A stretch of DNA of 64,000 nucleotides from Onthophagus taurus. Taxonomy: Eukaryota; Arthropoda; Insecta; Coleoptera; Scarabaeidae. Location: contig NC_091971.1 in NCBI RefSeq assembly GCF_036711975.1, positions 2,611,501-2,675,500 on the forward strand, in the 5' to 3' direction. Of this stretch, positions 895 to 47,300 are shown piece after piece (position 1 is the first letter of the stretch; every line of letters starts with the position of its first letter). The position numbers and the translations under genes were made by a program. The notes under the pieces are model-generated. The model did not search any database. It was not told where the DNA came from and worked only from the letters and a program-made list of their open reading frames with translations.

Positions 895-2600
895 GTATAA
901 AATCGGTATATTCCCCAAGTTGTGTACACGATGTATAAATCAAGGACGGTATGTAGTTGTAGTTTTAGTTGTTATTCAGTGCTAGATTGTTGTATTTTTT
1001 TATTGAACTAAAAGTAGTACTCGCAGTGAGGCTGTGATTCAGTGCTAGGTTGCTGTATATTGTTATTGAACTAAGAGTAGACCTAGAACTAGAGACATTC
1101 GGGTTTAACTGTCTTTAAAGACGTACCCCGAATGTTTCTAGTTCTAGGTCTAGTGTTAGTTTTGGTGCTAGAACTAAAACTAGTGATAAACTAATGATAG
1201 TGCTAGTGTAAAACTAGAACTAACACTAGGCCTAGAACTAGAATCATTCGGGTTTAGCCGTCTTTGGAGACGTGCGGCTAAACCCAACTGATTCTAGTTC
1301 TATGTATAGCGTTAGTTCTAGTAACAGTGCTAGTGTGAAACTAAAATCAACAATAGATCTAGAACTAGCAACAACTAGCAACCCAACCCAACCCAGTCTC
1401 GAAAAGAGTGTAAAGAAACGTCAAAGAGAGATACATGATCATATCCCTGGTTATAAGAATTAAGAATTTGAATTAATGGCGAGTTTTGATAAAGGTTAAC
1501 ACCTTAGGTGTCGTCAAGGAACTCTTAAACGAAGAAACTGACCAACAACGCAGTATTTCCCAACTATTAGCTATCTCGAAATCGATCTCTCCTACGCCCA
1601 GTACCGATTTAGTTGTAGTCTCGCCAAAAACTACCTTTTCTTCCACTTTTTCCAACCACTTCTGCTTCAACAACTTCTATTACAACAACTATTATTGCAA
1701 CAACTTCTGCTCCAACTACAACTAGTTCCGTTACTTCATCGATTAATCCAGAAGCTAAAATCATAAACTTAACTGGAAATTCAATTGAAACCGAGAACTT
1801 GAATCACACCACCAAATTACAAAAAAAAACACAACCCCAGTTCAAACAGTTGAGAACTTGATCGGTCAAACCACTGAAAGTGTAAGTGATACTTCATCAG
1901 ACTCTTCACCAATTGAAACGGCTAAATTAGAAATGCTAAGAATTAGTACCGAAAATTCTGAAATTCCAACCACTTTAGTTGCTGAAGAGATCAAAGTTAA
2001 TTTTACTACGCAAGTTATTGAATCAAGCTCCAGCTTGAAAATATTTGAATCAGTAACGGAACAGATCGAACCTACCGAAACATTACTTAAGAAATTAAAT
2101 CTGATAATGTCAAAGTGTCACTGATTCAAGCAATAAGTTAGCTAAAAAATTAGAAATTTCGGAAAGAATTGAATCAGATACACCTCAAATATTACAAAGT
2201 ACAGAAACGTCTAAACTTCTGAAATGCCTTCAAATGCAGAAACCCCGCAACGTACAGAAATGTCCCAAAATTCAGAAAATCCTTCAAGTTCAGAAACTCT
2301 GAATATAATGCCAAGATCTTTTACTTTATCCGTAGACCGGATAGCAGTACCGTTAAAGTTGTAAGGAAAGTTAAGAGGATAACGTTTCCAAGTAAATGAA
2401 AATATTTGGCATTTGTCATAATTTAGGTAAAGTTTGTTGAGGCGACAGTAGTCAAGATCCTCCTGTAGTCTAAGACAGTTCAGATTAGACCCGATCCTTT
2501 TGTATATTTATTTTATTGAACTATAAGTAGAACTAACATTAGACCTAGAACTAGAAACATTCGGCTTTAACCGTAAAAATTAATGAACTAAAAACAGTCC
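895..2600. mobile_element. Old element carrying hairpin repeats (copy A)
   Basis: The left part (about 905-990) matches, in inverted orientation, the subterminal stretch beside the large array at 22210-22310 (shared words GATGTATA, ATCAAGGACG, TTGTTATTCAG). It is followed by two complete foldback units at about 1083-1170 and 1205-1325, built on arms ATTCGGGTTTAGCCG / CGGCTAAACCC, and a half unit at about 2530-2575. Between the units lies a degenerate coding-like stretch (separate entry). I saw no terminal inverted repeat at the outer edges, so the ends are approximate. The units are more diverged here than in the 20-22 kb array, which suggests an older copy. Confidence 0.55.
1380..2400 (+). 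pseudogene. Decayed Ser/Thr/Glu-rich coding-like stretch
   Basis: Short open stretches in different frames (1272-1463, 1486-1725, 1858-2124 and further pieces to about 2330) share one flavour: rich in S, T, E and N, with repeated phrases such as ESVTEQIEPTE and TPQILQSTETS. The codon-like texture continues across frame changes, as expected for a broken gene. I cannot name the source. It is flanked by hairpin units on both sides, so it may be sequence captured by the element or an unrelated gene fragment into which the repeats inserted. It could also be chance low-complexity sequence. Confidence 0.3.
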
Positions 2601-12599: not shown

Positions 12600-13070
12600 T
12601 GATTGAATTCCAATTTTCTCCTTTAGATCTTTAAGGTTATTAAAATTGTTGAAGTATATTTTAGGTTTTATATAAGAGTAACTATTACATTCTTTATTTG
12701 ATCACAAATATGTTGTAATTAAAAATCTCCTCTTCATCTCCACATTGATATCCTGGATCTATTTTTTTCTAACCAATTACCATGTATTGGGTCTTATCTT
12801 TGTTCATTTCCAAGCCCCATATATTGTATTCTTCTTCTACTTTATTTAACATATATCTCATATCTTCTTCGTCCTCTGCAAAAACTATTTGGTCGTCCGC
12901 GAAAAGCATGGTGTACACCCATCGGGTTGCATTTCATTTTCCAATGTTTTAAGGTTGAGTGGATATAGATTTTGAATATTGTTGGAGAGATCATCAAGCA
13001 TCAGTTGTGAGTTTTCCTACCTGAACCTCTGTCGCATTATCCTGTATAACGCTTTCACAGCATGATTGTA
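12600..13070 (-). mobile_element. LINE reverse-transcriptase fragment
   Basis: The minus strand reads through the catalytic palm of a non-LTR reverse transcriptase. An upstream piece (SPTIFKIYIHSTLKHWK) matches the usual SPTLFxIY segment, and then LFADDQIVFAEDEEDM carries the FADD catalytic box, followed by NIWGLEMNKDKTQYMVIG. Frames are broken and both ends are missing. The same family supplies the fragment at 40.7-41.06 kb. It is dead, since neither the endonuclease nor the rest of the reverse transcriptase is present. Confidence 0.8.
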
Positions 13071-14700: not shown

Positions 14701-15003
14701 CAATTAATGCTTCAAATATAAAACTTTGTTTTTCTCATTGTCAGTTCTTTTCCATTTACCTCCTTTACAATTTGAACAAATAAGGTAAGTCCTCTTTATC
14801 CTTTATATTCAATGGTGTAAACAATAAATATTCATTCGATTTGTTTGAACAAAGAATACCAAGTTTGATTACTTTTGTAACTAAATACGGTTGTTGAATT
14901 TATTTATAACACATTGAACTTTTATTTTTTAACTTTTTATTTGCTTTTAAATTAAAGAAAATCGAATTTTAAATAACTTTAAAGATGTTGTAGACCTAGA
15001 ACT

Positions 15004-16945
15004 ATATTGACAATGAAACGTCAAATTAAATGTCAAACGATAATTTTAAATAAAAAAATTTATTTGAATTATTTACATATTAATTAATTAATTTATAAAA
15101 ATAATAACTATAATTAAATAAAAAAATTAGTTTTTTAAATAACATAAAATTTTAATAATTAAACGTTAATACTAAAATGTTAGGTTGGTAAATATTTTAA
15201 ACTAAATTAGTATGAAACGTCAAAATTGACATTTAAATGTTAATTATCTTTTTATAGGTTATGTTAAAAATCGCTATGTCATTAGAAGTTATAAAAATAA
15301 AAATCATTTATATTTATTTACTTTATATACATATATCTTTATTAGTTAAGTTTTAAATTTTTCTTCTTGATATTAAGTTTGTTGTAAACAACGTGACTTC
15401 GATAAGAAGTGCCCATTTTCTTTCGTATCTTGTTGTTGTTGTTTAACGAGTTAGTCAAATAACCATTAAGATATCTTCTTACAGAAAATATTTTAAGTAC
15501 ATCATCGTTTTATTTTATTAAATAATTGAAATTTTAATTAAAACCAAATTTTTTTGTTGTACTATTTTGGGGTAAAAAGGAGTATATCTTTTATAGTTAA
15601 AGTTTAAAACTCATTCAGTTAAAATTGAGTAAAATTCCAAATGAAGCGTCTGGCTCATCGATCCAGACATGGGCGTAGCCCACAAAACCAGACAGAGAGC
15701 CAACAACAAAGTCTTTTCGTGTCAGTTTCTGCCCCATCTGTATTCATCCAGCATTCATCCCAACAAAATAATAATACTTTGACGACCCTATTTCAATACA
15801 CCACGTTGCAACTCGCCCCCACAAAAGTCAATATCGTAATGAATAGATTACAATTGAATATAGATGGTGATACGTCATTCAAACATTTTATTTAATTAAT
15901 TAAAATAATGTTGTAAATAAAAGTCGACTTGGTTAAAATTTATTCAAGGTTGTTATTCTAAATACGCTAAATTTGCAAATAGGATTTCATTTCAATACTA
16001 AGGAATTTTTATTTCCTTTTTATGCAACCGTTTACTTTTACTTGTTTTTAAGTAATTCTTTTTAAGATTGCGTTATGATCTTATCGGCTTGCGGAAAAAT
16101 TTTGTAACCAGAAATTATTAAAAAATAATATATAAAAGTTAAAACACGAATTTGTTATCATTTCCGGTTGGATTAAATTGAAAAAAAGCTCCAAACCGGA
16201 TGTAACGAAACCGAGTGACTAACACAAGACGGCGGGAACGCTACTGGACGTGTACTTCCTAGAATTTTTAAGTAGATTGTAGTCGTTTTTCATTGAGAAC
16301 GGTGAGGTGTATTAATATTAATGAGAATTTTTGATTTAAACTCGATTATTAAAAACAAAAAGAAATAAATTAAAACGTTACTAAATCAATTTGTTTTATT
16401 CGATTTAATTTCTTAAACGTTTTTTCAATATATTTAATTTACAACCGTGTTTTGCTATTTGGTATCTTATCAAAACTTTTATCAACATTTATTTAAGTGG
16501 AGAACTAAAGTTAATTAATTTATTTTTATTTATTATTTATTTATTTTTATTAAATGTACAGTCAAATCTCGATATAACGAATTAATACGGGGAATGGAGT
16601 GTCCGTTATATAAAAAAATTTGCTGAAATTTGATGATTTTTATAACTTATGACATAACGATTTTTAACATAACCTATAAAAAGATAATTAACATTTAAAT
16701 GTCAATTTTGACGTTTCATACTATTTTAGTTCAAAATATTTACCAACCTAACATTTTAGTATTAACGTTTAATTATTAAAATTTGGTGTTATTTAATAAA
16801 ATTATTTTTATAATTAATTATCGTTATTATTTTTATACTTAATTATCGTTATTATTTTTATAAATTAATTAACATGTAAATAATCCAAATATATTTTTTT
16901 ATTTAAAATTTTCGTTTGACATTTAATTTGACGTTTCATTGACAA
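15004..16945. mobile_element. 1.9 kb element with about 310 bp inverted-repeat arms
   Basis: The left arm (about 15004-15315) is the diverged reverse complement of the right arm (about 16610-16945). Matching landmarks are the outer ATTGACAATGAAACGTCAAA, the middle ATGTTAGGTTGGTAAATATT, and the inner TATAGGTTATGTTAAAAATC. The 1.3 kb between the arms is AT-rich and holds one 84-codon open frame at 15641-15895 (Gln/Ser-rich, unrecognised, followed by AATAAA). There is no transposase. The outer flanks are halves of a hairpin unit (AGACCTAGAACTA on the left, ACGCACGGCTAAACCC on the right), so the element appears to sit inside one. The family is unknown. Confidence 0.65.
16560..16612 (+). repeat. 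Solitary pogo/Tigger-like terminal inverted repeat sequence
   Basis: CAGTCAAATCTCGATATAAC, preceded by TA, closely resembles the ends typical of pogo/Tigger-like DNA transposons and the reverse complement of the sequence at 22354-22379. No partner end was found nearby. It lies just inside the inner edge of the right arm of the 15.0-16.9 kb inverted repeat, suggesting nested or rearranged elements. Confidence 0.45.
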
Positions 16946-16959
16946 TTAGACGCACGGCT

Positions 16960-17115
16960 AAACCCGAAACTTTTTAGTTCTAGTTTTAGTTCAGTAAGAA
17001 TATACAACAATCTCACGTTGAGTAACAATTAAAACTAGAACTAACACTAGACCTAGAACTAGAAACATTCGGGATTAGCCGTCTTAAGAGACGTTCGGCT
17101 AAACCCGATGTTCGA
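16960..17115. repeat. Hairpin units (copy B)
   Basis: A half unit (GGCTAAACCCGAA at about 16963) is followed by one full unit at about 17030-17110 with arms around GTCTTAAGAGAC. They belong to the same family as the 20-22 kb array. Confidence 0.7.
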
Positions 17116-19697: not shown

Positions 19698-19756
19698 CTG
19701 TAAAACAAATAATCTCAAGTTATTATCAACAATGAACTAACAAGATATTTAATACA

Positions 19757-22379
19757 ATAAAACCTCAATACAACAAAAATCTGTTAAATGAAAAAATTGT
19801 TAATTTGCACTTTAAACGTGTGAACCTCTGACAATGCTGAATAACAATTAAAAGAAGAACTAACACTAGCATTAGAACTAACACTAGACCTAGAACTAGA
19901 AACATTCGGGTTTAGCCGTCTTAAGAGACGTTCGGCTAAACCCGAACGATTCTAGTTCTTGATCTAGGGTTGGTTCTAGTAATAGTGTTAGCATTAGATT
20001 AGAACCAACACTAGACCTAGAACTAGAAACATTCGGGTTTAGCCGTCATAAGAGACGTTCGGCTAAACCCGAATGATTCTAGTTCTTGATCTAGTGTTGG
20101 TTCTAGTAATAGTGCTAGCATTAGATCATTAGAACCAACACTAGACCTAGAACTAGAAACGTTCGGGTTTAGCCGTCTTATGAGACGTTCGGCTAAACCC
20201 GAACGATTCTAGTTCTTGATCTAGGGTTGGTTCTAGTAATAGTGTTAGCATTAGATTAGAACCAACACTAGACCTAGAACTAGAAACATTCGGGTTTAGC
20301 CGTCTTAAGAGACGTTCGGCTAAACCCGAATGATTCTAGTTCTTGATCTAGGGTTGGTTCTAGTAATAGTGTTAGCATTAGATTAGAACCAACACTAGAC
20401 CTGGAACTAGAAACATTCGGGTTTAGCCGTCTTAAGAGACGTTCGGCTAAACCCGAACGATTCTAGTTCTTGATCTAGGGTTGGTTCTAGTAATAGTGTT
20501 AGCATTATATTAGAACCAACACTAGACCTAGAACTAGAAACATTCGGGTTTAGCCGTCTTAAGAGACGTTCGGCTAAACCCGAATGATTCTAGTTCTTGA
20601 TCTAGTGTTGGTTCTAGTAATAGTGCTAGCATTAGATCATTAGAACCAACACTAGACCTAGAACTAGAAACGTTCGGGTTTAGCCGTCTTATGAGACGTT
20701 CGGCTAAACCCAAACGATTCTAGTTCTTGATCTAGGGTTGGTTCTAGTAATAGTGTTAGCATTAAATTAGAACCAACACTAGACCTAGAACTAGAAACAT
20801 TCGGGTTTAGCCGTCTTAAGAGACGTTCGGCTAAACCCGAATGATTCTAGTTCTTGATCTAGTGTTGGTTCTAGTAATAGTGCTAGCATTAGATCATTAG
20901 AACCAACACTAGACCTAGAACTAGAAACGTTCGGGTTTAGCCGTCTTATGAGATGTTCGGCTAAACCCGAACGATTCTAGTTCTTGATCTAGGGTTGGTT
21001 CTAGTAATAGTGTTAGCATTAGATTAGAACCAACACTAGACCTAGAACTAGAAACATTCGGGTTTAGCCGTCTTAAGAGACGTTCGGCTAAACCCGAACG
21101 ATTCTAGTTCTTGATCTAGGGTTGGTTCTAGTAATAGTGTTAGCATTAGATTAGAACCAACACTAGACCTAGAACTAGAAACATTCGGGTTTAGCCGTCT
21201 TAAGAGACGTTCGGCTAAACCCGAACGATTCTAGTTCTTGATCTAGGGTTGGTTCTAGTAATAGTGTTAGCATTATATTAGAACCAACACTAGACCTAGA
21301 ACTAGAAACATTCGGGTTTAGCCGTCTTAAGAGACGTTCGGCTAAACCCGAATGATTCTAGTTCTTGATCTAGTGTTGGTTCTAGTAATAGTGCTAGCAT
21401 TAAATCATTAGAATCAACACTAGACCTAGAACTAGAAACGTTCGGGTTTAGCCGTCTTATGAGACGTTCGGCTAAACCCGAACGATTCTAGTTCTTGATC
21501 TAGGGTTGGTTCTAGTAATAGTGTTAGCATTAAATTAGAACCAACACTAGACCTAGAACTAGAAACATTCGGGTTTAGCCGTCTTAAGAGACGTTCGGCT
21601 AAACCCGAATGATTCTAGTTCTTGATCTAGTGTTGGTTCTAGTAATAGTGCTAGCATTAGATCATTAGAACCAACACTAGACCTAGAACTAGAAACGTTC
21701 GGGTTTAGCCGTCTTATGAGACGTTCGGCTAAACCCGAACGATTCTAGTTCTTGATCTAGGGTTGGTTCTAGTAATAGTGTTAGCATTAGATTAGAACCA
21801 ACACTAGACCTAGAACTAGAAACATTCGGGTTTAGCCGTCTTAAGAGACGTTCGGCTAAACCCGAATGATTCTAGTTCTTGATCTAGTGTTGGTTCTAGT
21901 AATAGAGTTAGTATTAGATCATTATAACCAACACTAAACCTAGAACTAGAAACATTCGAATTTAGGATTCTTAAGAGACGTTCGCGTAAACCCGAATGAT
22001 TCTAGTGTACATTGAAAAGTGTACAACAATCTAACACTGTATAGCAGTTAAAACTAGAACTAACACTAGACCTAGAACTAGAATCGTTCGGGTTTAGCCG
22101 AACGTCTCATAAGACAGCTAAACCCGAATGTTTCTAGTTCTAGGTCTAGTGTTAGTTGTAGTTTTAGTTCAATGTTGTATATTTTTCATTGGACTAAAAC
22201 TAGAACTAATACTAAACCTAGAACAAGAAACATTCTAGCGCTGAATAACAATCAAAACTACAACTATCGTCCTTGATCTATACATCGTATAAACAACACT
22301 CGGGGAATACCCCAAATTTATCTATAAACATGAAATTACTCTATTTAATTCACGAGATCCGTTATATCGAGGTTTATAC
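19757..22379. mobile_element. 2.6 kb element with pogo-like ends enclosing the hairpin array
   Basis: The left end reads TA then CAATAAAACCTCAATACAAC. The right end, on the other strand, reads CAGTATAAACCTCGATATAA. They align over about 25 bp with gaps and resemble pogo/Tigger-like terminal repeats. Inside there is no transposase, only 17 tandem hairpins, one further hairpin at about 22050-22170, and a subterminal stretch (22210-22310) also present at 905-990. A large non-autonomous element whose core expanded in tandem is the simplest reading. The TA target duplication is clear only on the left. Confidence 0.5.
19860..22010. repeat. Tandem array of 17 foldback units, 127/130 bp, with a 768 bp higher-order repeat
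   Basis: Each unit is itself an inverted repeat. A left arm of about 44 nt ends in ATTCGGGTTTAGCCG, the loop is around TCTTAAGAGACGTT, and the right arm starts CGGCTAAACCCGAA. The arms differ at only about three positions. Unit starts (the C of the conserved C[A/G]TTCGGG) fall at 19903, 20030, 20160, 20287, 20414, 20541, 20671, 20798, 20928, 21055, 21182, 21309, 21439, 21566, 21696, 21823 and 21953, so steps are 127 or 130 bp. The 130 bp steps carry an extra 3 bp (GATCATTAG instead of GATTAG). The step order 130-127-127-127-130-127 repeats with a period of 768 bp, and private variants (CATTATATTAG at about 20514 and 21282; CATTAAATTAG at about 20760 and 21528) recur 768 bp apart. The last unit is more diverged. 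Confidence 0.95.
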
Positions 22380-22644
22380 TGTTTACTTCGACGATTTAAA
22401 ATTTCTAAAATAAATAACAAGTCTAAGAAAAGATTAATAATAAAGATAACAACAGAAATACTTGAGAAGTACTGAGAATTCAATATATTTTTAATAATCG
22501 CGACATAACCGTTTTCCAGCAACTATACCATGATCAGCTTTTAAATTTTAATTACGATAAAAATAAATTAGCGTCATAATTAAAACTTGGCGCTATTAAT
22601 AATTAAAACTGACGATAAGATAACAATGATAATAAAATTTACCT

Positions 22645-25600
22645 CTAGTAACCGCAGTTTATTAAGTAATCTCCTAGCTTTTCTACAACGGACGCGGCTT
22701 GCTGGGGTTGGATGGGATCTTCGTATAAGGAAACTACAACAGCTGCAACAAAACGAAATTATTCATTATTATCATTAGTAAAAACTTTTTTTTTTGAGAA
22801 TTTTTGATGATGAGTAATTTTTTTTGTATTAAAAACGAAGAATTTTTCTCTAGATATAAATAGAAGCAATTACTACGCTTGAATTCGCGTATTTTGGCAA
22901 CGGATCGAGGATCGAGAGAGATATTTTCACTCCGGGTATTTCGGTAATTTCCTAAATTTGTGCGAAAATCGGGACACAAAAAACTAGGCAATAAAAACAA
23001 CGGTTTCGTCAAAGATATTTTTGAAATAAATTCGAGTGGGAGAGGATGTGATAAATAATAACGATAATATCCCACACACTATTAAAAAAAATCTAATGTT
23101 GGTTCATCCATTAATATTATGTGTTTTCTACATATAATTTTTTATTTCCGGCATATTAAAAATTAAGTAAAAGAAATTTTTTGTCTGGAGCGATTTCAGT
23201 TTAAAAAAGTCCATTAACAATTAATTCTTCATGTTCCACTTTAGTTATTGCATAACCAACTTCCTTTACTGGATAGGTAAAGGTTCGCTGTAGAAAAATT
23301 CTTCTTCCTAGGTTTCATAGAATTCATCATCTGATTTATACTTCACCTTTTCTGGCTTTCTATTAACCAGGTTTTCAAAAATTTTGACCTTGAGCAGAAC
23401 CAATACCATCTAGAGATGAATCAGATATACCTATACTTGATAACAAATATGAAGCGAGCGATACTGTGGCGATTGATCCAATGAACGATGATGTAGTGGA
23501 TTAGCACCATTACATTCTTCTGACATATGCAATCTCAACTGTCAACTTAGGTTTTGGCTGTACAAACGATAATTCTGTACAGTCAAAACGGAAAAAACCT
23601 AGGTACAAGTTATGTTTCGAAAACAGGAATCCATCAACATCCATCAATCGTGTTTGGCTGGCCGCTACAAAATTCATTAGTCAACCCAAGTTGCGGTAAA
23701 AGTTTGACAACCCAAAATATAAATGTTTTAAATTCGATGAATTGAAATAGCTCTATAACAATCGATAATTCAGGCTCAACATCCTAATACAGCTCATTTA
23801 TTGAAAAATCCATAAACCAAATTACGCAAAGTATATAACTGGAGTAACCTTTTACGTTAATTTGCTTTTCGTGCCAATGTATAAAGTAAAATATACAGAT
23901 TAGTAACTGTAAAGTTGTTAAGAAATAGATATAACAACATCATGAAACTTATGATCTAATACTAGAGTTCTAGTCATAGTAGCATCAGCCGTTAACAAAC
24001 AATACAAAAAAACTGGTGTCAATGCAGAGCTTTCAATCCCTAAGAAATCGTTCTATCTTGCATTAAAAGTTGTGAAATGGATTCTTCGAATTTTCTTCCC
24101 TTTATTGATCTAACACAGTATGTTCCTCAATGAGTTAGTTGGTGTTGGATACAAGTCCAACTAGCAAAACCAGATGTGGAAGCGATAATCAAGAAATACA
24201 AACAAGTTATCCTTGTGAAAAAGAAGTCTAGTGAAGCGAGACCAGATGTTTGTGTATACACCGAACAGCATTAAAGCAGCAAGTGGTCAGAGTAATAAAG
24301 TTTCCTTTGTAATTATCAACAATTGTTGTCTCGCCGATACTAAATTAGACAACACTAAATTGCAACGCTTTGACGACAAGCGACCTTGGCTAAATTCAGA
24401 ATATCAAATATAGAATTTTGTATGAGACGTCAAGGTCACAGCTGATGCTACATCAAACTAAATTGGCAACGAATTCACCTGATTACAGAGAATGGCCTAA
24501 TTATTTATGGCCAAGACTATCCATGATAACCAAAAACTGGTTCTAAATACCATGTCAACCCAAACCTTCTGCTAAATGCTGTAACATTCAGTTAAAGCAC
24601 TCCTGATAAACATTTCTGTAATATCTAGTTTGTTATCATAGAAATAAAAATATTGCTGTATCTAAACATTGATCTAGATAGAACTTGTATTCTTCCAATG
24701 GAAAATTATTAGGAAAGTAATTTAAACAAACAGAAGAGGTTTTGTGAACGTTATTGTTCAAGCAACCTCAGTTGCGTCACAAACTTTCCAGTGTGGACAT
24801 GCTGATTTACTCATGATAATATAACAAAATTAAGCAAAATGTATATTCAAATAAATGAAGTTGTTTTAAGTTAATAGTAATATATTTCAACCATGAAATA
24901 ACTACACAATTATTTACAAACATTCTTTTGAACCGATAATGTTGTATTTGGCTTCAAGCCACTTCCTAATTATGGTCTCAATTTGCCGAATTTTTTACAT
25001 TGAAAATACAGCATTTTAAGCAATATTCAGTAATAGTCAATTAATATTGTACATGTAATGCAGTAAGACGAGACAAAACGTAGTCTACAATATACTTTGT
25101 GAAGCAAATGTATTATTAAACGAAGGTTATTTGTAATAGTCTAACGACCTTTGCATATGGTAAGTAACGGAAAGTTTTGGAATCTTTTGGTCTGCAGGCT
25201 AATCATTTTCGAAGTGGTTTCTGGCTGTATTTTATGTGCCTTGTAAAATAACAACCCAGTGTTATTCTGCCAAACTGTATAATGTGTAAACTATAACTCC
25301 ACATAAAGCAATGTATACCGTTAATAATCGAGTGACCTTGACATTTGTAAGTATCAAGGAGACCAGTAGTTAGCTACATACATAGTTGGTTAACTAAATT
25401 TATCTTCTTCACAACAACATGTAACACGCAAACATTATCTTGAGTGATGCCGTATCAATCTAAGATTTATCTCATATATGTTGCCACTTGCAACTATACA
25501 AAATAAGCGCCTCACTTTAAACTGTTTAGATAAATCAAGTTTAGTAGCTGCACTTTTTGACAATTAATGCTGTATAGTAATGAAAAAAAGAACGAAATAT

Positions 25601-27904
25601 ATAAAATAATTGATAAAATCCAATTTATTTCCTCCTAAACCGGTTAAAAACAAACATTGATTATGTTCTTTGTCTTGATAAGATAATTCGGTATAAAAGA
25701 ATTGAAGGAAAATAAAATTTAATTTTAAAAGTAATAAGAATGAAAAAAACCAATTTCGTTTAATTTTTTTAAAAGCAACCATATCGTATTATCAAGAACA
25801 ATAAATCTTGCACACGGTCAACTCGCCACCACATTGACCCATTTGAAACGTGAAAGTTGCCGACGACGACTGTTGTACTGGTCCAAAACGAAAAAGCAGG
25901 CGCCTTTTTCTTGATCCGGCGCCAACCGTCCAAGAAAACTTTTAATAAACACGACAAGAGTCACCAAATATTCCTCTAAAAGACAACGACGACGAATCCG
26001 CCGCCGCCGCCGCGTTTATTATTTTTAGAAACGCGTTTCACATTCCTCGCACACACACACTCTCATTTTCTCTCTCTCAGTTAACTATTTAAACTTTACC
26101 TTGCGTGGTCTTCATGCAATGCACGCCAACCTTCCCTAACTTGGCCCTGATCACTCTGTCCGTACCGGAAAGGTAAATGTAACGATTCCCGGCTAAGGTT
26201 ACACCCGACGACGTCAGGATATCTTGCTTTTCAAAACCGCTTACTAATTTTACCAATTCATCCTTTGTTACCTGCAAAAAACAAACTTATAAACAAATTT
26301 AAACTGTCACTTTGACAATTTGATATCGCGTACGCGTGCGCAAACAAACTCGACAACGCCCAACGCCGTTTACGATGACCTTTAAGGTACGTCTCGCAGT
26401 CTGAATCAATCAAATTCGTGCAATACTAAAAATTGCAAAAGTTTCGCCACATTTGGCACAATGCATTCAGTTTCAAAATGGATACATTTATTAATAATCG
26501 CGATGAATCATAACCGATATAACATTACGATTAGGGCAACCCCAAAAAAGGGAAAAGAATTTAAATAATCTCGTGACTCATCGTTCGGCCTTGATATACA
26601 AAAATATCTATCAATACATTTTATAAAATTTTATTTTTTTTGTGTAAGAATCCCTAATACATTTCGGACGCAATTTCTACGTTCGCCAAAACGTGATACG
26701 GGGGACTCTCTTTTATCTAACAGTTCAATGACCGCCCGTGCAATTCTAGACATGCACGAGGGGTGACAACTGTATAATATCTTAATTAATTTAATTAATT
26801 AGAAATAAAATTCCCAAAAAACAGTTTTTTTTTTAATTCTAATTTAAGCAATTAGATTTCTAAAAGTCCAGTTTTGTATAGTTAAACATGTGGTCGGTAG
26901 CCGTGACTAACGTAAACAGATCATTACGGTGGTCAACAACTGGTTAATCGGCCTCAAAAGGCCGGATTAAAGGAGAATCGTTTTAAAATTTCCCGCCGTG
27001 GATGAAAATGGGGAAAAAAACGGGACAGACACCGTCTACTAGATGTGTAGAGGAGACTATTGATCGTACAGATTAGCGAGCGCGACGGTCAATGCGCTAT
27101 CGTGGCCTTAACCTTACATTGAAATAGACAACTAACTTCATTTGTTGTCTAAGGTTCAAAATTATATACCTAAAAATTACAAAAAAAAAGATTAATAAAA
27201 AAAAAATAGTGTGAGTAATATTTATTAATCATAAAATATTAAATATTGATAAAAAATCAATAAAGATAAAAATAAGATATGAAGCAACCAAACAATTTTA
27301 TATATTTTACATATAAATAGGGAAAAAACATTTTTTCCTTGTTAGAAATGATGATTTTAATTTTTGATTATTTTAGAATTAAGATTTTGATTTTGGCAAC
27401 AATGAAAAAACAAAATCGTTTCGAAATTTTAAACGAATGAAACACGTCGCAAGATCAGGACGGCCGCCATTTTGTGTAAAATACCGGCTTTGTGAATAAG
27501 GCATGCGAAATTCATCGTAATTTCAACAAGTTTCTCAACCTGAGTCATCGCTTACAATCTAAAATCTCTCTTAAAACAATTAAAACTACCCAAAAATGTA
27601 CCCTTTTAAGGACTCCATTCATACGAAGCACCCCTTTGGTGCAATAAAAAAAATTTACTATAGCCAAGCCCCTAAAGCAAAGAATTTTTTTTTGTAAAAC
27701 CGGTTTTTTATAGTCACCATTTTCAATGGGTGCAAAATAATAATTTTTTATTGATTATTTAATAAAAATCGGGGTAATTTTGTTCGAACTTACCTCGAAA
27801 CCATCACTTTTAGCCCAGACGTTGCCGTCTAAGCCGGCGATACAAGCCTTGGTCACACAACGGGAGGCAACGAGCTGTTTGTCTACGTAATCTTTCCAGC
27901 TCAT
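22645..27904 (-). CDS. chic: Profilin
   Basis: Profilin binds actin monomers, catalyses their nucleotide exchange and delivers them to formins and Ena/VASP through polyproline binding in the cytoplasm. Three coding exons: 27904-27794, 26271-26100 and 22742-22645. They join in phase to 126 residues, the usual insect length (Drosophila chickadee). The protein begins [14 protein letters not shown] and ends [12 protein letters not shown], both hallmark ends: the N- and C-terminal helices form the polyproline groove, with W3 and the terminal Y conserved. The middle [14 protein letters not shown] and HCMKTTQ are also typical. Introns of 1.5 and 3.4 kb hold no recognised gene. A donor lies just after the stop, so the 3' UTR is probably spliced over the hairpin array. 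Upstream of the ATG is a GA-rich stretch (GAGAGAGATAGAGGAGGAG) at about 27990-28010, a possible GAGA-type promoter element. Confidence 0.97.
23080..25560. other. Profilin intron filler, unidentified, distinct composition
   Basis: This 2.5 kb part of profilin intron 2 is less AT-rich and has fewer homopolymers than the surrounding intron, as if inserted. Short open frames (23554-23745, 24231-24413) look like nothing known. I found neither terminal repeats nor tandem structure. It may be an eroded transposon. Confidence 0.3.
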
Positions 27905-28712
27905 ATTGTCGGCGTTTTTAGTTAGGTTATTTAGTTAATAAATTTGAGGTGAGATTTAACACGGCACTCACAGAGTGTTATAGTAGATAAGAGAGAGATA
28001 GAGGAGGAGAAACGTTAAACCGCGGGTATTATTATATCGGTATCACCAGGCACGGTTCTCGCCGCACGGCAAACTGAAGCTCTCGCAAAAGCCTCGATCA
28101 GCAGACAGCTCAAGCGGAAGCGACCAGATGACATGCGCAAAATGATACTAGCCAACTATCTAAAAATTATTTCCCTACCTTAAAAGAACGTGTCGTATCG
28201 TCTTTGCCAACTTCAAAATATTAAACATTTCAATTTATAATCATCAAATAATTTCAATTAAAAACATTTTTCTTTTAAAATGAACATTTTAAGATAATTT
28301 ATAAAATCAATTTATTAAAATTATTTAATCTTTTATGTTTGTGACTTTAAAATTATTTTTAAATGCATTTTTTCATCGATTATGGGTTAATGATCAGGTT
28401 ACGAACACAAATGTTAGTACTAATCGTAAGTAGTAAATTAAAACTTACGGTAAAGCTCCATCGATAACTGTTATTGGTTATTAGATCACACCACTAAAAG
28501 AATTTTTAAAATAACTTACAGAAACCAAGCTAAACATTAACATTAATGTGTAAGTGGGGATGTGATGGGTAATCTGCATCTACTTATATGGTATACATTA
28601 TCAAATCAATAGAAATGAATAATTTAGAGCGAAAATACATCATATTTTGGATAAATCATATAAGAAGCCCAAAAAACTAATGGTAGCAATAGATTATGCT
28701 CGACCTCTGCTT
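27905..28712. other. Profilin promoter side and intergenic sequence
   Basis: The first 200 bp upstream of the profilin ATG are GA-rich, then GC-rich (CTCGCCGCACGGCAAACTG at about 28048-28066), as in a housekeeping promoter. Beyond 28150 the sequence is AT-rich with no gene seen. Confidence 0.4.
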
Positions 28713-29134: not shown

Positions 29135-29341
29135 GCAGATATCGCAGAAGAAGATAAGGAACGAATAAGAAGATTCCATATAAATCTTTAGATTTTAGTG
29201 GCAATGTACCATAAAAGCATACCATGTACAAAAAAATGTTGATTTGTTTTAACGTAAATATTTTTAATACTTTACCAGACTTGTTATTGAAAAAGCTAAG
29301 CTAAAACTATGTATAACCCTATTAACATCTTGATGTAAGAA

Positions 29342-29950
29342 TTGAATGCCAGAACTACCATTTACAGGTTTATGCAATATGCCCAAAACTGTTCCGACAT
29401 GTCCTATCAATGGGCTGCGGAAAACACTATAAGCAGTGATATTGTGCTATCAATCCCGTCGGAGTTGACGAGATCACTACCAGTGAATAATGCTCGATAC
29501 CAGATTGTACTGCCTGAGAGGAAGTCTTGGATCGAAAACGAAAATTCTCTGGTTCAGACAGATATTTGCATGTTCACAGATGGATCAAAAACGCTGGAAA
29601 GGATCTGGGCAGAGGTATACTCACAGATATTTCGGATTAAGCAAGCTTATAGCCTGGGTACGTACTGTACTGTATTCCAGGCGGAAGTATTTGCTATTGA
29701 CATGAGTTGCACACCGAGTTGTGATAACAGAGTATCTCTGATCTGGGTCCCAAGACATTCTGGGGTTACTGGCAATGAAGCAACAGATGAGCTAGCACGA
29801 GAGGGCAGCGCTAAAGCGTTTGTGGGGCCAGAGCCAGCAATTGGTATATCATTTGCGATGGCCAAACATAGGATTAAGCTGTCAAACACCATTGAAGATC
29901 TAATGGGTGTCTTTACTGGGAACTGCCGATTAAAGATCGGTGTGCAATAG
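29342..29950 (+). mobile_element. LINE fragment: decayed RNase H region
   Basis: One 202-codon frame reads as the RNase H domain found at the 3' end of some non-LTR retrotransposons. MFTDGSKT holds the first catalytic Asp, VFQAEVFAID the catalytic Glu, and LIWVPRHSGVTGNEATDELA the C-terminal His/Asp segment. About 40 residues between the second and third blocks are missing, and the sequence after TDGS is garbled, so the domain is dead. No reverse transcriptase remains upstream. Confidence 0.85.
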
Positions 29951-31613: not shown

Positions 31614-34600
31614 TTAGATCAGATCGGCCACGTTCATCGGCATCTCGTCTATATGCGTATTGTAAAACTGTTCAATATCTTTCAGGTTGCGCTTGTCGTC
31701 CTCTGTAACGAAATTTATCGCCACTCCTTTACGACCAAATCTACCACCACGACCAATCCTAATCGAAAAATATACACAAAAAATTATTACAAACATAATA
31801 TTTTTTCACAGCATTAATAAAGCTTAATATTTCTTATGTGTACTAATATATTTTGAATTTTAATTATCAAGAAATATTTATGCAATAATATATTTTTCTG
31901 CTAAATAATTGAGAAATCTCTGATACAATATCATGTAAATTGTCTATAATTGGAACTTATCTCAAATGATGTAGGCTCACTTTTATCATCATTCTGATAA
32001 ACTATCAAGTGGATAGTTGCCAAGGTTATAGTGGACAATAAAAGTGATCTTTTTCAACAATTTAGCCAATAGATATAGATTTTTCTGATATCATATGGGA
32101 CTATTTCAACTACTGAGCACTTGCACTGTCCCACATAAAATGCAACATAGCTTAATAGTACAGGCATTGGGTAGTTTTGCAAAGGAAAAGTTTTGTTTGG
32201 AAAAAGCCGACATCCTTATGACAACCTTGAGTTTTACGCAGCTAAACCCGAATGTTAAAAATACGCAACCTACCAGCCGTCTTAAAAGAAGTACTTTCTG
32301 TTCTAGGTCTAGTATTAATGCTAGTGCTAGTGTTAGTCTAGTTTTATATGTTATTACTTTTATAACTGTTTTAAAGTACTTTTTTAGCGTTATCTCAAAA
32401 ACGGCAAAGTTTAGCATGCCGAAATATGGTGTACAGGGATATTTTGACGTGACAAATATGATAATCAAAGGGAAAAAAATAAATAATTTATGGGGTTCAA
32501 CAAAGCAGGTTTAAGGTACTACATTTTCCCAACCCAACCCAACCCAAATTTGGTATACGTTATGAGTGTACCAACTGTATTAATGGGTAGCAAATTGAAC
32601 TCAATTGAGGCATTTCAAAGGGTTAATTAAGGGTGATGGTACCCTAAATGTTGATAGATTTTTTTAACCTTTTGGCGGATTTAATACATTACTACTTCAT
32701 TTCATGTGGAATTTAATTCTAAAACTTTTCTTATTCTTATTATTTTTTAAAAAACTGTCGTTTTCTTAAAAAACTTAAATAACTAAAGACACGTATTTCG
32801 TAATGTTACTTAAAAGAAGCGAAAATTCAGTAGTCGGCTATGAAATTGTACGTCAAACTTGACAAATAGGTTATAAAATTATTTGACAAGGTTTTATAAC
32901 CTATTTGTCAAGTTTGACGTACAATTTCACAGCCGACTACTGAATTTTCGATGATTTTAAATAGTATTAACGAAATGTGGTTTAGTTATTTGAGTTTTTT
33001 ATGAAAACGACAATGTTTTTTAAAAAATAATAAGAGTAAAAAAAGTTTTAGAATTAAATTCCACATGAAATGAAGTAATAATGTATTAAATCCACCAAAA
33101 GGTTAAAAAAAATCTGTCAACATTTAGGGGACCATCACCCTTAATCAACCCTTTGAAATGCCTAAATTGGTCTCATCTTGCTACTAATTTATACCATTGG
33201 TACACTCATAATGTATACCAAATTTGGTTTCTCTAGCTTAAAGTATTACAAAGATATTGAATGTTTCAAAAATTTAAGAGCCAACTTTGAAGGCCTATAA
33301 CTCCTCAGGGGTATAACTTTGTATAGAGATAAGTTGCGTTAAATCATCTTAATTTATTGACCTCTACATGTCCCTGCTCTGTGTCGGTTCTTAGGTGAAT
33401 CACCCTGTATAATATATTAATAAACCTATCTTTATGAGTTTTGATATAGAACCACTCTTTAAATACAGGGTGGTTCAGTTTTTAATTGGGAAACTTTTGA
33501 ACGCTATGGAATATTAACATAAAAAAATATGGGTTGTAAAGCTCAGTCTTTAGTGGTGCTTTTTTGTCTCTTTATTATTTTCCTTAAAGTTAATAGTTTC
33601 CATGTAAAAAAATAAAATATCGTGTCATGTACCGCTATGTTTAGCTAAAATTATTCTAAAAGTTGGCTCTGAGAACTTGTAAGTTTCATTTACACTGAAT
33701 CCTCATAATTATTGCTGATTATTAATAATTTTTGATTGTTATTAAGCAAGAGTATCAATTTTTTAATATTGTTTAAAACAACGTAATTTGTTCAGACAGG
33801 CATTAATCTTATTTATGATTTTTCTTATGAAAATCACAATTAATTGGTGTTATTTAGTTAGTACTAGATCCTAGTAAGTGCACAACTTCCATAGCCACCT
33901 ATAAAGAAAATTTTTTTTTAATAATATCAGCGCTTTACACTACAGTGTAGCATATTTTATTTTTTTACGCTAAAACTATTATCTTTAAGGAAAAAACTAA
34001 AGACCCAACCCATATTTTTTTATGTCAATATTCCATGGCGTTAAGAAGATGTTATAAAAAAATCAAAGGGGTCGTGAATTTCATCCCCTTACAGGGCGCT
34101 AGGGAAGTTTAATACATATAAAATTTCAAATTCTGTGGTTTACTCATACCCGAAATAATAGATAAAATATAAATTTTTGGCTCAACTTTGACAGCTCATA
34201 GCTTGAAAACAAGAGAGTTGCGACCGTTATATAAAAAAAAACTTGTTATTTTGGCAGGTACTACATCCTAGTAAAGTTTCCTGATTAAAAACTGAACCAC
34301 CCTGTATCTAGACGCATTTTCCAAACACCTGTATTTACCTACCAATATATTATTATGAAAATGTTTATGATGTTGTTTGTTAGACTTTTTGTATTTACTA
34401 TATACATTGTATTTACTACAATTTAGTCTTTCTAATCATGTTAACAAAGAGGATGTCCTGAAAATATCCAAAAATATTCCGCCACTATAAGAGGGTTGGA
34501 ACAACTAACCTGAATAAAAACTGATATGGCTAAAACACTCCATACAATTTTAATTTAACACACTCCATAAGAATCAGTTCCTTCATAAAATGAACAATTA

Positions 34601-39570: not shown

Positions 39571-39624
39571 ATCATTGCAAGTATGCAACCAATATCACAG
39601 TATTGGTTGCATACTTGCAATGAT
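39571..39624. repeat. Perfect 24 bp palindrome with a 6 bp loop
   Basis: Arms 39571-39594 and 39601-39624 are exact reverse complements (the arm starts ATCATTGCAAGTATG), and the loop is TCACAG. It lies in intergenic DNA after CCT6. It could be the core of an eroded foldback element or a small-RNA hairpin. The perfect pairing argues for recent origin rather than a conserved microRNA. Confidence 0.85.
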
Positions 39625-39884: not shown

Positions 39885-40720
39885 TTACGAAACTACTATG
39901 CACTTGCTCTATCCCACATAAAATGCAACATAGGTTAGGCCCACTTTTACCACCTCTTGATAAATTTATCCGATAGATAAATTGGCGCTCTTAGCCAATG
40001 AGAGCGCTTAAAACCGCTGTAACCATGGCAATAATCCCTTAGATAGTTTATCAGGAAGCTGCATTGGGATGCATTGCTTGGAAAAAATGTACGTCCTTAT
40101 GATCACCTTGAGTTTTCGGCCGTCTTAAGATACGCACGGCTAAACCTGAATGTTTCTCGTTCTAGATCTGGTGTTACTTCTACTTTTCGTTCAATAAAAA
40201 TATATCACATTCTAACGCTGGATAACAATTAAAACTAGAACTAACAGTAGACTTAGAACTAGAAACATTCGGGTTTAGCCGTCTTTAGAGACTTGCGACT
40301 AAACCCGAATGTTTTTAGTTCTACGTCTATTGTTAGTTTTAGTGATAGTGGATTGATTCTAATTCTAGGTCTTGTGGTAGTTCTAGTGATAGTGCTAGTG
40401 CAATACTAGAACTAACACTGGACCAAGAACTAGAAACATTCGGGTTTAGCCGCACGTCTCTCAAGACGGCTAAAGCCGAATGATTCTAGTTCTAGGTCTT
40501 GTGTTAGTTCTAGTGATAGTGCAATACTAGACCAAGAACTAGAAACATTCGGATTTAGCCGCACGTCTCTCAAGACGGCTAAACCCAAATGATTCAAGTT
40601 CTAGGTCCAGTGTTAGTTCTGGTGATAGTGCTATTGTAAAACTAGAACTAACACATTCTGAAGACGCACGGCTAAACACGATACTTTCTACTTCTAGGTC
40701 AAGTGTATAATTTTTAATGC
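39885..40720. repeat. Hairpin-repeat cluster (copy E), about five units
   Basis: A leading module (39890-40115, shared with 32100-32240) is followed by hairpin units at about 40120-40165, 40240-40335, 40410-40500, 40520-40610 and a remnant at 40640-40700. The arms carry ATTCGG(G/A)TTTAGCCG, with apices GTCTTTAGAGAC or ACGTCTCTCAAGACG. Units are spaced unevenly (108-172 bp) and diverge more than in the 20-22 kb array. Confidence 0.8.
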
Positions 40721-44341: not shown

Positions 44342-47300
44342 ATGGATATAACAGTAGACAAATTAGATTTGCATGTAGTGAAGCTTGATTTAGCTAAAGG
44401 AATTAAAGAATGTTCGGAGCGGGGGTTAATACATTCTGTGAAATGGTTGTCCGAACTCAATTTTTCTTTATCTTATATAAAACTACCATCGGAAGATTAC
44501 AATCAAATTTCTAACGTTTACGACGACGAATACGATGTTTACGCTATGGCTAAATCTTATTTAGATTTAAAAGAATACGATCGATGTGCTCATTATACCA
44601 AAAATTGTGTTAATTTAAGAACAAGATTTTTACATTTTTATTCTAGGTGAATTCGTTAAAATTAGGCATAAACACCAATTATATTTGTTTAATTTTAGAT
44701 ATTTATCGATTGAAAAAAAGAAATTAGATAATATGACCGATTCTCATTGTCCACCGGATCCGATGAATAATGCAGCATTAAAAAATTTATGTGCAGATTT
44801 AAAAGCGGATTATTATGACAAGAAGATGGATGGTTATTGTTTGTATTTATATGGGGTTGTGTTAAAACGTCTTGAAGTAACTAACACAGCTATCGATGTT
44901 TTTAATGAAGCTGTAAATGCAACTCCAATTTTATGGAGTGCTTGGCAAGAATTAGCTCAAATGATACCAAATAAAAATAAATTAATGTCAATGACTTTTG
45001 CGAACCATTGGATGAAACCTTTTTTTCTTGCTTTCGCTTATTTAGAACATTTGTGTAATGATGAGAGTTTAGAAATTTATTGTAACTTGCATGATCAAGG
45101 TTTTCATAAAAGTTCGTTTTTGATGGCACAAACTGCCATTGTACATCATAATAGAAGAGGTTAACTTTAAAATAGGAAAAATTCAAGAATCATCATGTTA
45201 AAAATCGACGATTTTTTTTAATTAATGTGAAATGATCCAAAAAAACATGTTATAAATAAAAGGAAATCGCGGAAAAGTGTCGAACATATCGAAAAATCAC
45301 ATTAATGTTTCGATGTGACGTCACAATCAATGTTAACTATACATTTTCCTATTAAACCTTACCTACAAATTGTTTATTTTATAGTCACACAAAAAATCAA
45401 TCTGATAAACTTAAAAGTAAAGTTATTTTAATAAAGATTTGATATCAAAAATATGTCAACTTTCTGTACTTTCAACTGGTCGTTTATTAAAATATATTTA
45501 TCTGACTAGTTTCAACTTAAAAGCCATCTTCAGAGATAACAATCGAATAATTCAAGAAAATAAACTTTTCTTTCACTTTTTATATTGTAAAACGTTTGCC
45601 AAAATTTCAATTTTAGAATTAAATAATTCTGGAGTTAAATTTATCAAACTTTATAATGTTATTTTCTTGAATTATTCGACTTTTATCACTGAAGATTGCT
45701 TTTAAGCTGAAACTAGTCAGATAAATATATTTTAATAAACGACCAGTTCAAAGTACAGAAAGTTAAGAAATTAACGATATTACTGGTAGAATGGATTACG
45801 AATTTAACTTTAATCAGATAAGGTTATTTTCACTTAACACGTATATTTACGGATGAAACACCCTTGTTTTTCTTAGGTTTTCGATGCATAACGACCGACT
45901 ACCTGTCATTAGATAGACTGTTTGTCAATAGACTCTGTGTTAATACTAGAACTAGCATTAGACCGAAAACTACAAACAGTCGGATTTAGTCGCACCTCTC
46001 TAATGACGGCTGAACCCGAATGATTCTGGTTCTAGGTTTAGTGTTAGTTCTACTTTTCTTTCAATAAAAATATACCACAAGTTAACGCTAAATACATTTA
46101 AAACTAGAAGTAACACTACACCTTGAACTAGAAATATTCGGGTTTAGCCCCACGTCTCTCAAGAGGGCTAAACTCGAATTTTTCTAGTTCTAGTTTTAGT
46201 GCAATAAAATTATGCAACATAGTGATATCTTATGCCAACTAGCGCCAACTAACATTAAATCTAGAATTAGAAAGTATTGGGGTCGATTTTTAAGCAACAT
46301 GATGATTCTTGAATTATACCTTAAAATATAAAAAAAAATTCTAGATTTTTAATAAATTTGTTTTAGAGTTAGAAAAATCGATAGAAGCATTTAAAGAATT
46401 AATAAAAGATGATCCTTATCGTTTAGATAATTTAGACACTTACTCAAATTTGCTTTATGTAAGAGAATTAAAAAGCGATTTAGCTTATTTGGCACACACA
46501 GCAGTGGCCATTGATAAATATCGCGTTGAAACTTGTTGTATTATCGGAAATTATTATAGTATTCGTTCAGATCATCCAAAAGCAGTTTTGTACTTTCAAA
46601 GGGCTTTAAAATTAAACCCACAATATTTATCAGCTTGGACTCTAATGGGGCACGAATACATGGAAATGAAAAATACCAACGCAGCGATTCAATGTTATAG
46701 GCACGCCATTGAAATTAATAAACGAGATTATCGTGCTTGGTACGGTTTAGGACAAACTTATGAAATATTAAAAATGCCTTATTATTGTATGTATTACTAT
46801 AAACAAGCCCAACATTTACGACCGGTTGATAGCCGAATGTTGGTGGCTTTAGGAGAGACATACGAAAAATTAGACAAAATTGAATATGCCCTAAAATGTT
46901 ATTATAAAGCATGCAACCTTGGTGATATCGAAGGAATGGCTTTAGTTAAATTGGCTAAGTTATATGTAAAGTTGAATCATCAAGTAAATGCTGCTGCAGC
47001 TTATGCTGAATTTGTGGGTAAAATCGAATTGAAAAACTCAATGACTTATGAAGACCAAGGCGAATTTTGTATGGCCCTCCAATTTTTGGCACATTACCAC
47101 ATGAACAAAGGAGAATATGATGAAGCTCAAATGTATGCAAATAAATTGTTAGAAATCGATCAAGTAAGTCATATCTTCTTGAATGTTTGAATTTATTAAA
47201 TATTTTTGTTTTAGACGAAAGAAAATGGTAGAGCTTTATTAAAAACTATAGCTGCTAAAAGAGGTGAACAAGAATCAGAATTAATGCCCATGGATGAAAC

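What the first reader, a model, noticed from the sequence alone, without database searches (positions are those of the whole stretch)
19860..22010. Hairpin satellite with higher-order repeat organisation
Seventeen tandem units, each a near-perfect foldback with about 44 nt arms, step at exactly 127 or 130 bp, and the step order plus private variants repeat every 768 bp (six units). Higher-order repeats of this kind are known from large centromeric satellites such as alpha satellite. Finding one in a 2 kb array beside a housekeeping gene, built from self-complementary units, is unusual. It implies repeated unequal exchange or rolling-circle growth after units had diverged.
Basis: seen in the sequence. 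Interest (0 to 1): 0.85.

Follow-up and report, generated by a model that had tools for sequence, protein, structure and literature searches.

The report
Small hairpin satellite beside profilin gene
A 2.1 kb run of about 17 hairpin-shaped DNA repeats lies just downstream of an animal's profilin gene, and it looks like a local expansion of a scattered repeat in which one six-unit block was later duplicated.

Summary
The array is real: 16 intact units of 127 or 130 bp plus a degenerate 17th at window 19871-22008. All 16 fold as hairpins with ~46-nt arms that mismatch at 3 to 6 positions. Units six apart are the most alike: mean 1.8 differences, against 3.1-3.3 at lags 2, 4 and 8 and 5.5-5.9 at odd lags to 7; 0 of 20000 shuffles of unit order do as well. 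The 768-bp order covers only units 2-15, which is 2.33 copies, with 8 mismatches in 1025 aligned bases. One block duplication explains it; alpha-satellite-like amplification is not needed. The same hairpin family occurs at six or seven other places in the 64 kb. Remnants of the older repeat flank the array, and one flanking module recurs at 897-991. The 'housekeeping gene' is profilin; its stop codon ends about 640 bp from the array. Best reading: neutral local expansion of a hairpin-bearing interspersed repeat, comparable to Tetris of Drosophila virilis, with a higher-order order as in TCsat38 of Tribolium. Transcription and small RNAs could not be tested, and no host genome was held.

The parts
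19871..22008 (.). tandem array: 16 intact hairpin units (127 or 130 bp) and a degenerate 17th
   Evidence: TRF score 3753, period 127; unit tables
19998..20765 (.). 768-bp block, copy 1 (units 2-7)
   Evidence: 8 mismatches in 1025 bp from 19998 vs 20766
20766..21533 (.). 768-bp block, copy 2 (units 8-13)
21534..21790 (.). 768-bp block, partial third copy (units 14-15)
   Evidence: units 8 vs 14 differ at 0 sites, 9 vs 15 at 1
19833..19869 (+). left remnant of the older dispersed repeat (its spacer)
   Evidence: 86% match to 40214-40250; 19838-19869 91% to 17019-17050
22022..22052 (+). right remnant of the same spacer
   Evidence: 84% to 964-994 in inverse orientation, hairpins masked
22053..22166 (-). 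single hairpin copy of the dispersed form, loop in the opposite orientation to the array
   Evidence: 92.6% to an array unit in inverse orientation; fold z -14.2
22229..22321 (+). flanking module of the interspersed repeat, shared with 897-991 in inverse orientation
   Evidence: 80.4% over 97 columns, E 7e-19, hairpins masked
22361..22385 (-). possible terminal inverted repeat (right); candidate partner at 19750-19774 (+)
   Evidence: motif read from the right copy matches at 19760-19775 with 3 mismatches, but a plain alignment of the two flanks is no better than chance (1150 of 1869 controls as good)
22645..22742 (-). profilin last coding exon and stop codon
   Evidence: reading frame after an AG acceptor, recognised from recalled profilin C-terminal motifs; Pfam names profilin from exons at 26092-26286 and 27758-27934
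1068..1322 (+). dispersed copies of the hairpin (two)
2520..2574 (+). dispersed half hairpin
16948..17112 (+). dispersed copies (half hairpin plus truncated hairpin)
40119..40706 (+). dispersed cluster of about five whole or partial copies, with a 109-bp tandem step at 40417-40631
45941..46201 (-). dispersed copies (two) between two Cdc23 coding exons
   Evidence: Cdc23 by Pfam ANAPC8 and TPR

Best explanation
This is a small satellite array in gene-bearing DNA, born inside one copy of a dispersed, non-coding, hairpin-bearing repeat family (non-autonomous transposon-like). Shown: the same hairpin is scattered through the window, and the array is flanked on both sides by pieces of the older repeat. 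Inferred: a founder unit with imperfect arms was copied in tandem (slippage or unequal exchange), diverged into three types (A 130 bp, B and C 127 bp), and then one block of six units (768 bp) was duplicated by an unequal exchange, followed by few mutations. No function is needed. The palindrome is inherited from the parent repeat rather than kept by selection in the array: all 16 units share three arm mismatches, and copies elsewhere differ between arms about as much as between copies.
For: Dispersed relatives: 54 matches to the 14-base core at up to 2 mismatches, 33 in the array and 21 outside it, against a largest value of 2 in 100 shuffles; BLAST copies at several other places. Flanking pieces: 19833-19869, 22022-22052 and 22229-22321 match other copies. 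Lag-6 signal, 99.2% over 1025 bp. Simulation: under its model a multi-unit block duplication is needed and one is enough. Arms: three mismatch columns are in 16 of 16 units. Within-copy arm difference is 0.156, against 0.158 left-left, 0.176 right-right and 0.172 left-right between copies, in 9 copies of which one is an array unit.
Against: No transposon ends, target duplications or transposase could be established; the terminal-repeat pair fails a plain alignment control. No host genome was held, so copy number and other arrays are unknown. At one arm pair the unit types differ: A-T in the six A units and unit 4, G-C in the five B units, A x C in the other four C units; this could hint at pairing constraint, though 10 of 16 units carry a mismatch at another position where the A units pair. 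Within-copy arm pairing is slightly better than with shuffled partners (p 0.028), which points towards some arm correction or constraint.
Confidence: 0.8

Rival explanations
1. Hairpin-RNA locus: the array is transcribed, perhaps in the profilin 3' untranslated region or its read-through, and its hairpins are cut into siRNAs, as for the tandem hp-CG4068 locus of Drosophila.
For: Tandem self-complementary units, RNA energies -61.6 to -73.1 kcal/mol for the 16 intact units. hp-CG4068 has 20 tandem copies in D. melanogaster and 9 in D. simulans (PMC10317233 passages). After the profilin stop codon the first AATAAA on its strand lies beyond the array, at 19497.
Against: ATTAAA variants occur before the array (22547, 22490, 22344), so the transcript may end earlier. 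No Rfam match at gathering threshold in the window. No BLAST match of the unit at E up to 1e-3 outside the repeat family in the window (a 20-nt target could be missed). When 19800-22400 is folded whole, only some units fold on themselves and others pair elsewhere (9 stems of 15 bp or more listed). No RNA data.
Confidence: 0.08
2. The array is the internal repeat of a mobile element (foldback, or Helentron-type HINE, or TIR transposon) and moves with it, so that similar arrays exist at many places.
For: Shared flanking module; a short tandem cluster of the same hairpin at 40119-40706 with a 109-bp step; precedents Tetris and Cg_HINE; abundant non-autonomous palindromic Tc1-mariner elements in a seed beetle (PMC10849321 passages).
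Against: No element ends, target duplication or coding part found; the other sites in the window hold about 1-5 copies, with other spacers; terminal-repeat candidate not above control.
Confidence: 0.25
3. Assembly artefact: repeat units duplicated or misordered in assembly.
For: Short near-identical tandem units are hard to assemble; no reads available.
Against: Several units carry variants of their own (units 1, 2, 5, 7, 9, 13 and 16 at least) and the 768-bp copies differ at 8 of 1025 sites, which a simple false duplication would not give.
Confidence: 0.05

Closest known systems
Tetris / TIR-220 of Drosophila virilis (PMC4079207; abstract, outline and passages seen)
   Same: A foldback-type, apparently non-autonomous repeat whose internal tandem repeats grew into satellite-like arrays; the paper links one copy-number change to unequal crossing-over.
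   Different: There the ~220-bp repeats lie inside long terminal inverted repeats and the amplification is placed in beta-heterochromatin; here each unit is itself a hairpin and no transposon ends are established.
TCsat38 and other low-copy satellites of Tribolium castaneum (PMC10218199; passages seen)
   Same: Short, scattered satellite arrays; TCsat38 arrays are dimeric higher-order repeats.
   Different: The word 'hairpin' does not occur in its main text; here the order is six units and only 2.33 copies.
TCAST-like elements in Tribolium euchromatin (PMC3411249; passages seen)
   Same: Satellite-like repeats as partial monomers to tetramers near genes and in introns; a transposon-like form is likely to form hairpins.
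   Different: Monomer several times longer (four complete monomers 1440 nt); here an expanded array of 16 intact hairpins. The sequences were not compared.
HINE / Helentron elements with central satellite-like repeats (PMC7492417; passages seen)
   Same: Dispersed short tandem arrays carried between shared flanking modules.
   Different: Helentron hallmarks (subterminal inverted repeats, 3' palindrome, TT insertion) were not established here.
hp-CG4068 tandem hairpin RNA locus (PMC10317233; passages seen)
   Same: Tandem hairpin units whose copy number varies.
   Different: Transcription and siRNAs are shown there, not here; here the units belong to a dispersed repeat family.
Tribolium satellites with long inverted segments (PMC13081366; passages seen)
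   Same: Satellite monomers that are largely palindromic.
   Different: There monomers of 704 bp with ~300-bp inverted segments in megabase regions; here 127/130-bp units in 2 kb.

Membership tests
Higher-order repeat satellite | units more alike to the matching unit of the next block than to neighbours | tested here: met
   lag 6 mean 1.8 vs 5.67 for neighbours, 0 of 20000 shuffles
Higher-order repeat satellite | several successive block copies | tested here: inconclusive
   2.33 copies only; order breaks at unit 1 vs 7 and 10 vs 16
Alpha-satellite-like centromeric satellite | large centromeric array | tested here: not met
   2.1 kb, ~640 bp from profilin in gene-bearing DNA
Foldback / MITE transposon | defined terminal inverted repeats and target-site duplication | tested here: inconclusive
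   candidate terminal repeats fail the alignment control, 1150 of 1869 controls as good; target duplication not tested
Foldback / MITE transposon | dispersed copies sharing flanking modules | tested here: met
   22229-22321 with 897-991; spacer shared by several copies
Helentron / HINE | subterminal inverted repeats, 3' palindrome, insertion between T and T | not tested
   element ends not resolved in one window
Hairpin-RNA (hpRNA) locus | transcribed; Dicer-dependent siRNAs from the arms | not testable with these tools
   no RNA data
Hairpin-RNA (hpRNA) locus | long self-complementary units | tested here: met

The most novel reading that the evidence does not exclude
The profilin transcript reads through the array, so that a housekeeping mRNA (or its long form) carries up to 17 hairpins that are processed into siRNAs against the dispersed repeat family, making profilin's 3' end a naturally grown hairpin-RNA trap for a transposon-like repeat.
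Probability: 0.05. Interest if true: 0.65.

Novelty: new member of a known kind. Interest (0 to 1): 0.3.

Why it matters
It is a compact, fully readable example of how a scattered hairpin repeat can turn into a satellite with a higher-order pattern: related copies, the founder's shared arm mismatches, three unit types and one six-unit duplication can all be seen in 64 kb. It suggests that a higher-order order needs only one block duplication in a 2 kb array. If transcribed with profilin it could be a hairpin-RNA source, which is testable.

Tried and rejected
Own genome: none held, so the genome-wide search for the unit was not possible. Viral contigs: 0 matches for the 21-base core pattern; 2 matches for a 19-base arm piece, short parts of both read and judged chance by eye, lying in stretches of their own short repeats. 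Prokaryote contigs: 0. Literature for the sequence itself: 0 papers for four strings of 14-17 bases. For a flank motif, 2 unrelated papers matched only one variant, and the motif itself and its reverse complement gave none; I recall the motif as typical of pogo/Tc1-like terminal repeats, but no call supports that. Coding function: 16 overlapping open frames of 49-61 aa lie on the minus strand of the array, but 127 and 130 are both 1 mod 3, so the frame shifts from unit to unit; rejected as a protein repeat. Known RNA: no Rfam match at gathering threshold. Selection for pairing: arms differ within copies about as much as between copies; not supported, apart from the weak p of 0.028. A search of the Protein Data Bank with one short profilin exon gave nothing at 1e-5.

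Rows dropped: one search leaves unit 17 out of the lag statistics. One search prints arms for 12 copies and within-copy values for 11; the means and the shuffle use 9 (array units 1, A8 and B15 left out as near-duplicates of C10), and the truncated copy at 17030 and the half hairpins were not included. One search drops simulated arrays with mean divergence under 1 (0 to 808 of 1500 per setting). One search drops control places at 19-23 kb.

Full report
What is there. Window 19871-22008 holds a tandem array with 16 intact units and a degenerate 17th. Of 16 steps, 10 are 127 and 6 are 130 bp. A 127-bp unit ends GCATTAG and a 130-bp unit ends GCATTAGATC, apart from single variants. All 16 intact units fold as hairpins: RNA energies -61.6 to -73.1 kcal/mol, 3 to 6 mismatches in arms taken as 46 nt; the 17th has 22 mismatches and -25.7 kcal/mol. 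Three units folded as DNA gave -39.5 to -45.8 kcal/mol with z of -12 to -14 against 200 shuffles. Three mismatch columns are present in 16 of 16 units and a fourth in 10 of 16, so the founder was an imperfect hairpin.

The higher-order pattern. I compared the 16 intact units (unit 17 left out). Mean differences are 5.67, 3.21, 5.77, 3.08, 5.55, 1.80, 5.89 and 3.25 at lags 1 to 8. None of 20000 shuffles of the unit order is as low at lag 6; 3 of 20000 are as low at their best lag of 3-8. Much of the even-lag likeness comes from A (130 bp) and B (127 bp) units alternating; the order is C A B C C A B A B C C A B A B A. The six-unit order holds from unit 2 to unit 15: 19998-21022 against 20766-21790 gives 8 mismatches in 1025 bp. 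It breaks at unit 1 vs 7 (5 differences) and 10 vs 16 (5 differences). So there are 2.33 copies of a 768-bp block. Few variants mark the 768-bp spacing itself: the last base T in units 5 and 11 only, and A in units 7 and 13 but also in unit 12. In a simple growth simulation, blocks of up to one or two units gave no such signal in any of the six settings tried; up to 4 gave it in 0.3-1.1%, up to 6 in 1.9-5.6%, and up to 8 in 9.7-13.9% of the runs kept. So, under this model with arbitrary rates, a block duplication of several units is needed, and one is enough.

Where it comes from. The hairpin is a dispersed repeat. A 14-base core has 54 matches in the window at up to two mismatches (largest in 100 shuffles: 2); 33 are in the array and 21 outside it, at 1.1-1.3, 2.6, 17.0, 22.1, 32.2, 40.1-40.7 and 46.0-46.2 kb. 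BLAST supports copies at these places, 75-97% alike to an array unit, except that 32.2 kb has only short pieces, found with the single copy as query. Several copies elsewhere share a spacer between hairpins (about AATAAAAATATACAACAATCTAACGCTGAATAACAATTAAAAC). The array's left edge (19833-19869) and right edge (22022-22052) carry this spacer, and beyond it 22229-22321 is shared with 897-991 in inverse orientation, 80% over 97 columns with the hairpins masked. So the array most likely grew inside a copy of the older repeat. Other short tandem growth of the same hairpin is seen at 40417-40631 with a 109-bp step.

Is the hairpin kept by selection? In nine copies (eight dispersed, one array unit) the arms differ within a copy by 0.156 on average, against 0.158 between left arms, 0.176 between right arms and 0.172 between left and right arms of different copies; shuffling partners gives p 0.028. 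That is at most a weak link between arms. At one arm pair the six A units and unit 4 have A-T, the five B units G-C and the other four C units A x C, but 10 of 16 units carry a mismatch at another position where the A units pair. I conclude that the array inherited its palindrome from the founder and was homogenised between units rather than between arms.

Surroundings. Profilin lies on the minus strand with exons at 27758-27934 and 26092-26286 (Pfam) and a last coding exon at 22742-22645, recognised by recalled C-terminal motifs, reading frame and splice acceptor. The stop codon ends about 640 bp from the array. On the profilin strand, AATAAA after the stop first occurs at 19497, beyond the array; ATTAAA occurs before it at 22547, 22490 and 22344. 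So it is open whether the array is in a transcript. Other genes by Pfam: a DEAD-box helicase (eIF4A3-like from recalled sequence), a TCP-1 chaperonin (zeta by its Protein Data Bank matches), an RCC1 protein, Cdc23 and others. Dispersed copies at 45.9-46.2 kb lie between two Cdc23 coding exons. The organism is named by no call; the gene structure and the recalled likeness of its profilin suggest an insect.

What it is like. Known cases cover each part: a foldback element whose internal repeats became a satellite (Tetris, PMC4079207, abstract, outline and passages); short scattered satellites and a dimeric higher-order satellite in Tribolium (PMC10218199, passages); satellite-like elements near genes, with a hairpin-forming form (PMC3411249, passages); dispersed arrays inside Helentron-type elements (PMC7492417, passages); and satellites with long inverted segments (PMC13081366, passages). 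The tandem hairpin-RNA locus hp-CG4068 (PMC10317233, passages) is the functional analogue to test; against it, a whole fold of 19800-22400 on the profilin strand lists only 9 stems of 15 bp or more, several units pairing elsewhere than with themselves. I looked for terminal repeats around the array: a motif at 22360-22375 recurs with 3 mismatches at 19760-19775 and with 1 at 16564-16579 (the motif was read from the right copy, so its match there is by construction; shuffles give 0.62 matches on average). A plain alignment of the flanks is no better than chance (1150 of 1869 controls as good). So membership in a transposon class is left open.

Verdict. It is a new member of a known kind, of modest interest, with one testable speculative reading (hairpin RNA from the profilin 3' end).

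Noticed in passing
15006-16946: A foldback-type structure: arms at 15006-15298 and 16636-16946 in inverse orientation, 87% alike over 314 columns. It abuts hairpin-repeat pieces on both sides (TAGACCTAGAACTA at 14991; half hairpin from 16948), as if it had inserted into a hairpin copy.
   Followed up: partly
2574, 16948, 32239, 40119, 40655: Five dispersed copies are cut in or next to their central loop, leaving half hairpins, while two others (17112, 22235) are cut elsewhere (read by eye); this might reflect breakage at palindrome centres.
   Followed up: no
56814-58169: Four copies of a 340-bp tandem repeat, 97% matches, in a stretch with strong C over G skew (-0.39 at 56001-58000).
   Followed up: no
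45442-45780 and 32541-33230: Two further inverted-repeat structures: 45442-45780 matches its own inverse over 350 columns at 78%; 32541-32787 and 32981-33230 are inverse copies at 90%.
   Followed up: no
39571-39624: A 54-bp palindrome, 89% self-complementary, between the TCP-1 exon and the hairpin cluster.
   Followed up: no
12772-12933 and 29339-29947: Fragments of retrotransposon-type proteins: reverse transcriptase (PF00078) and RNase H (PF00075).
   Followed up: no
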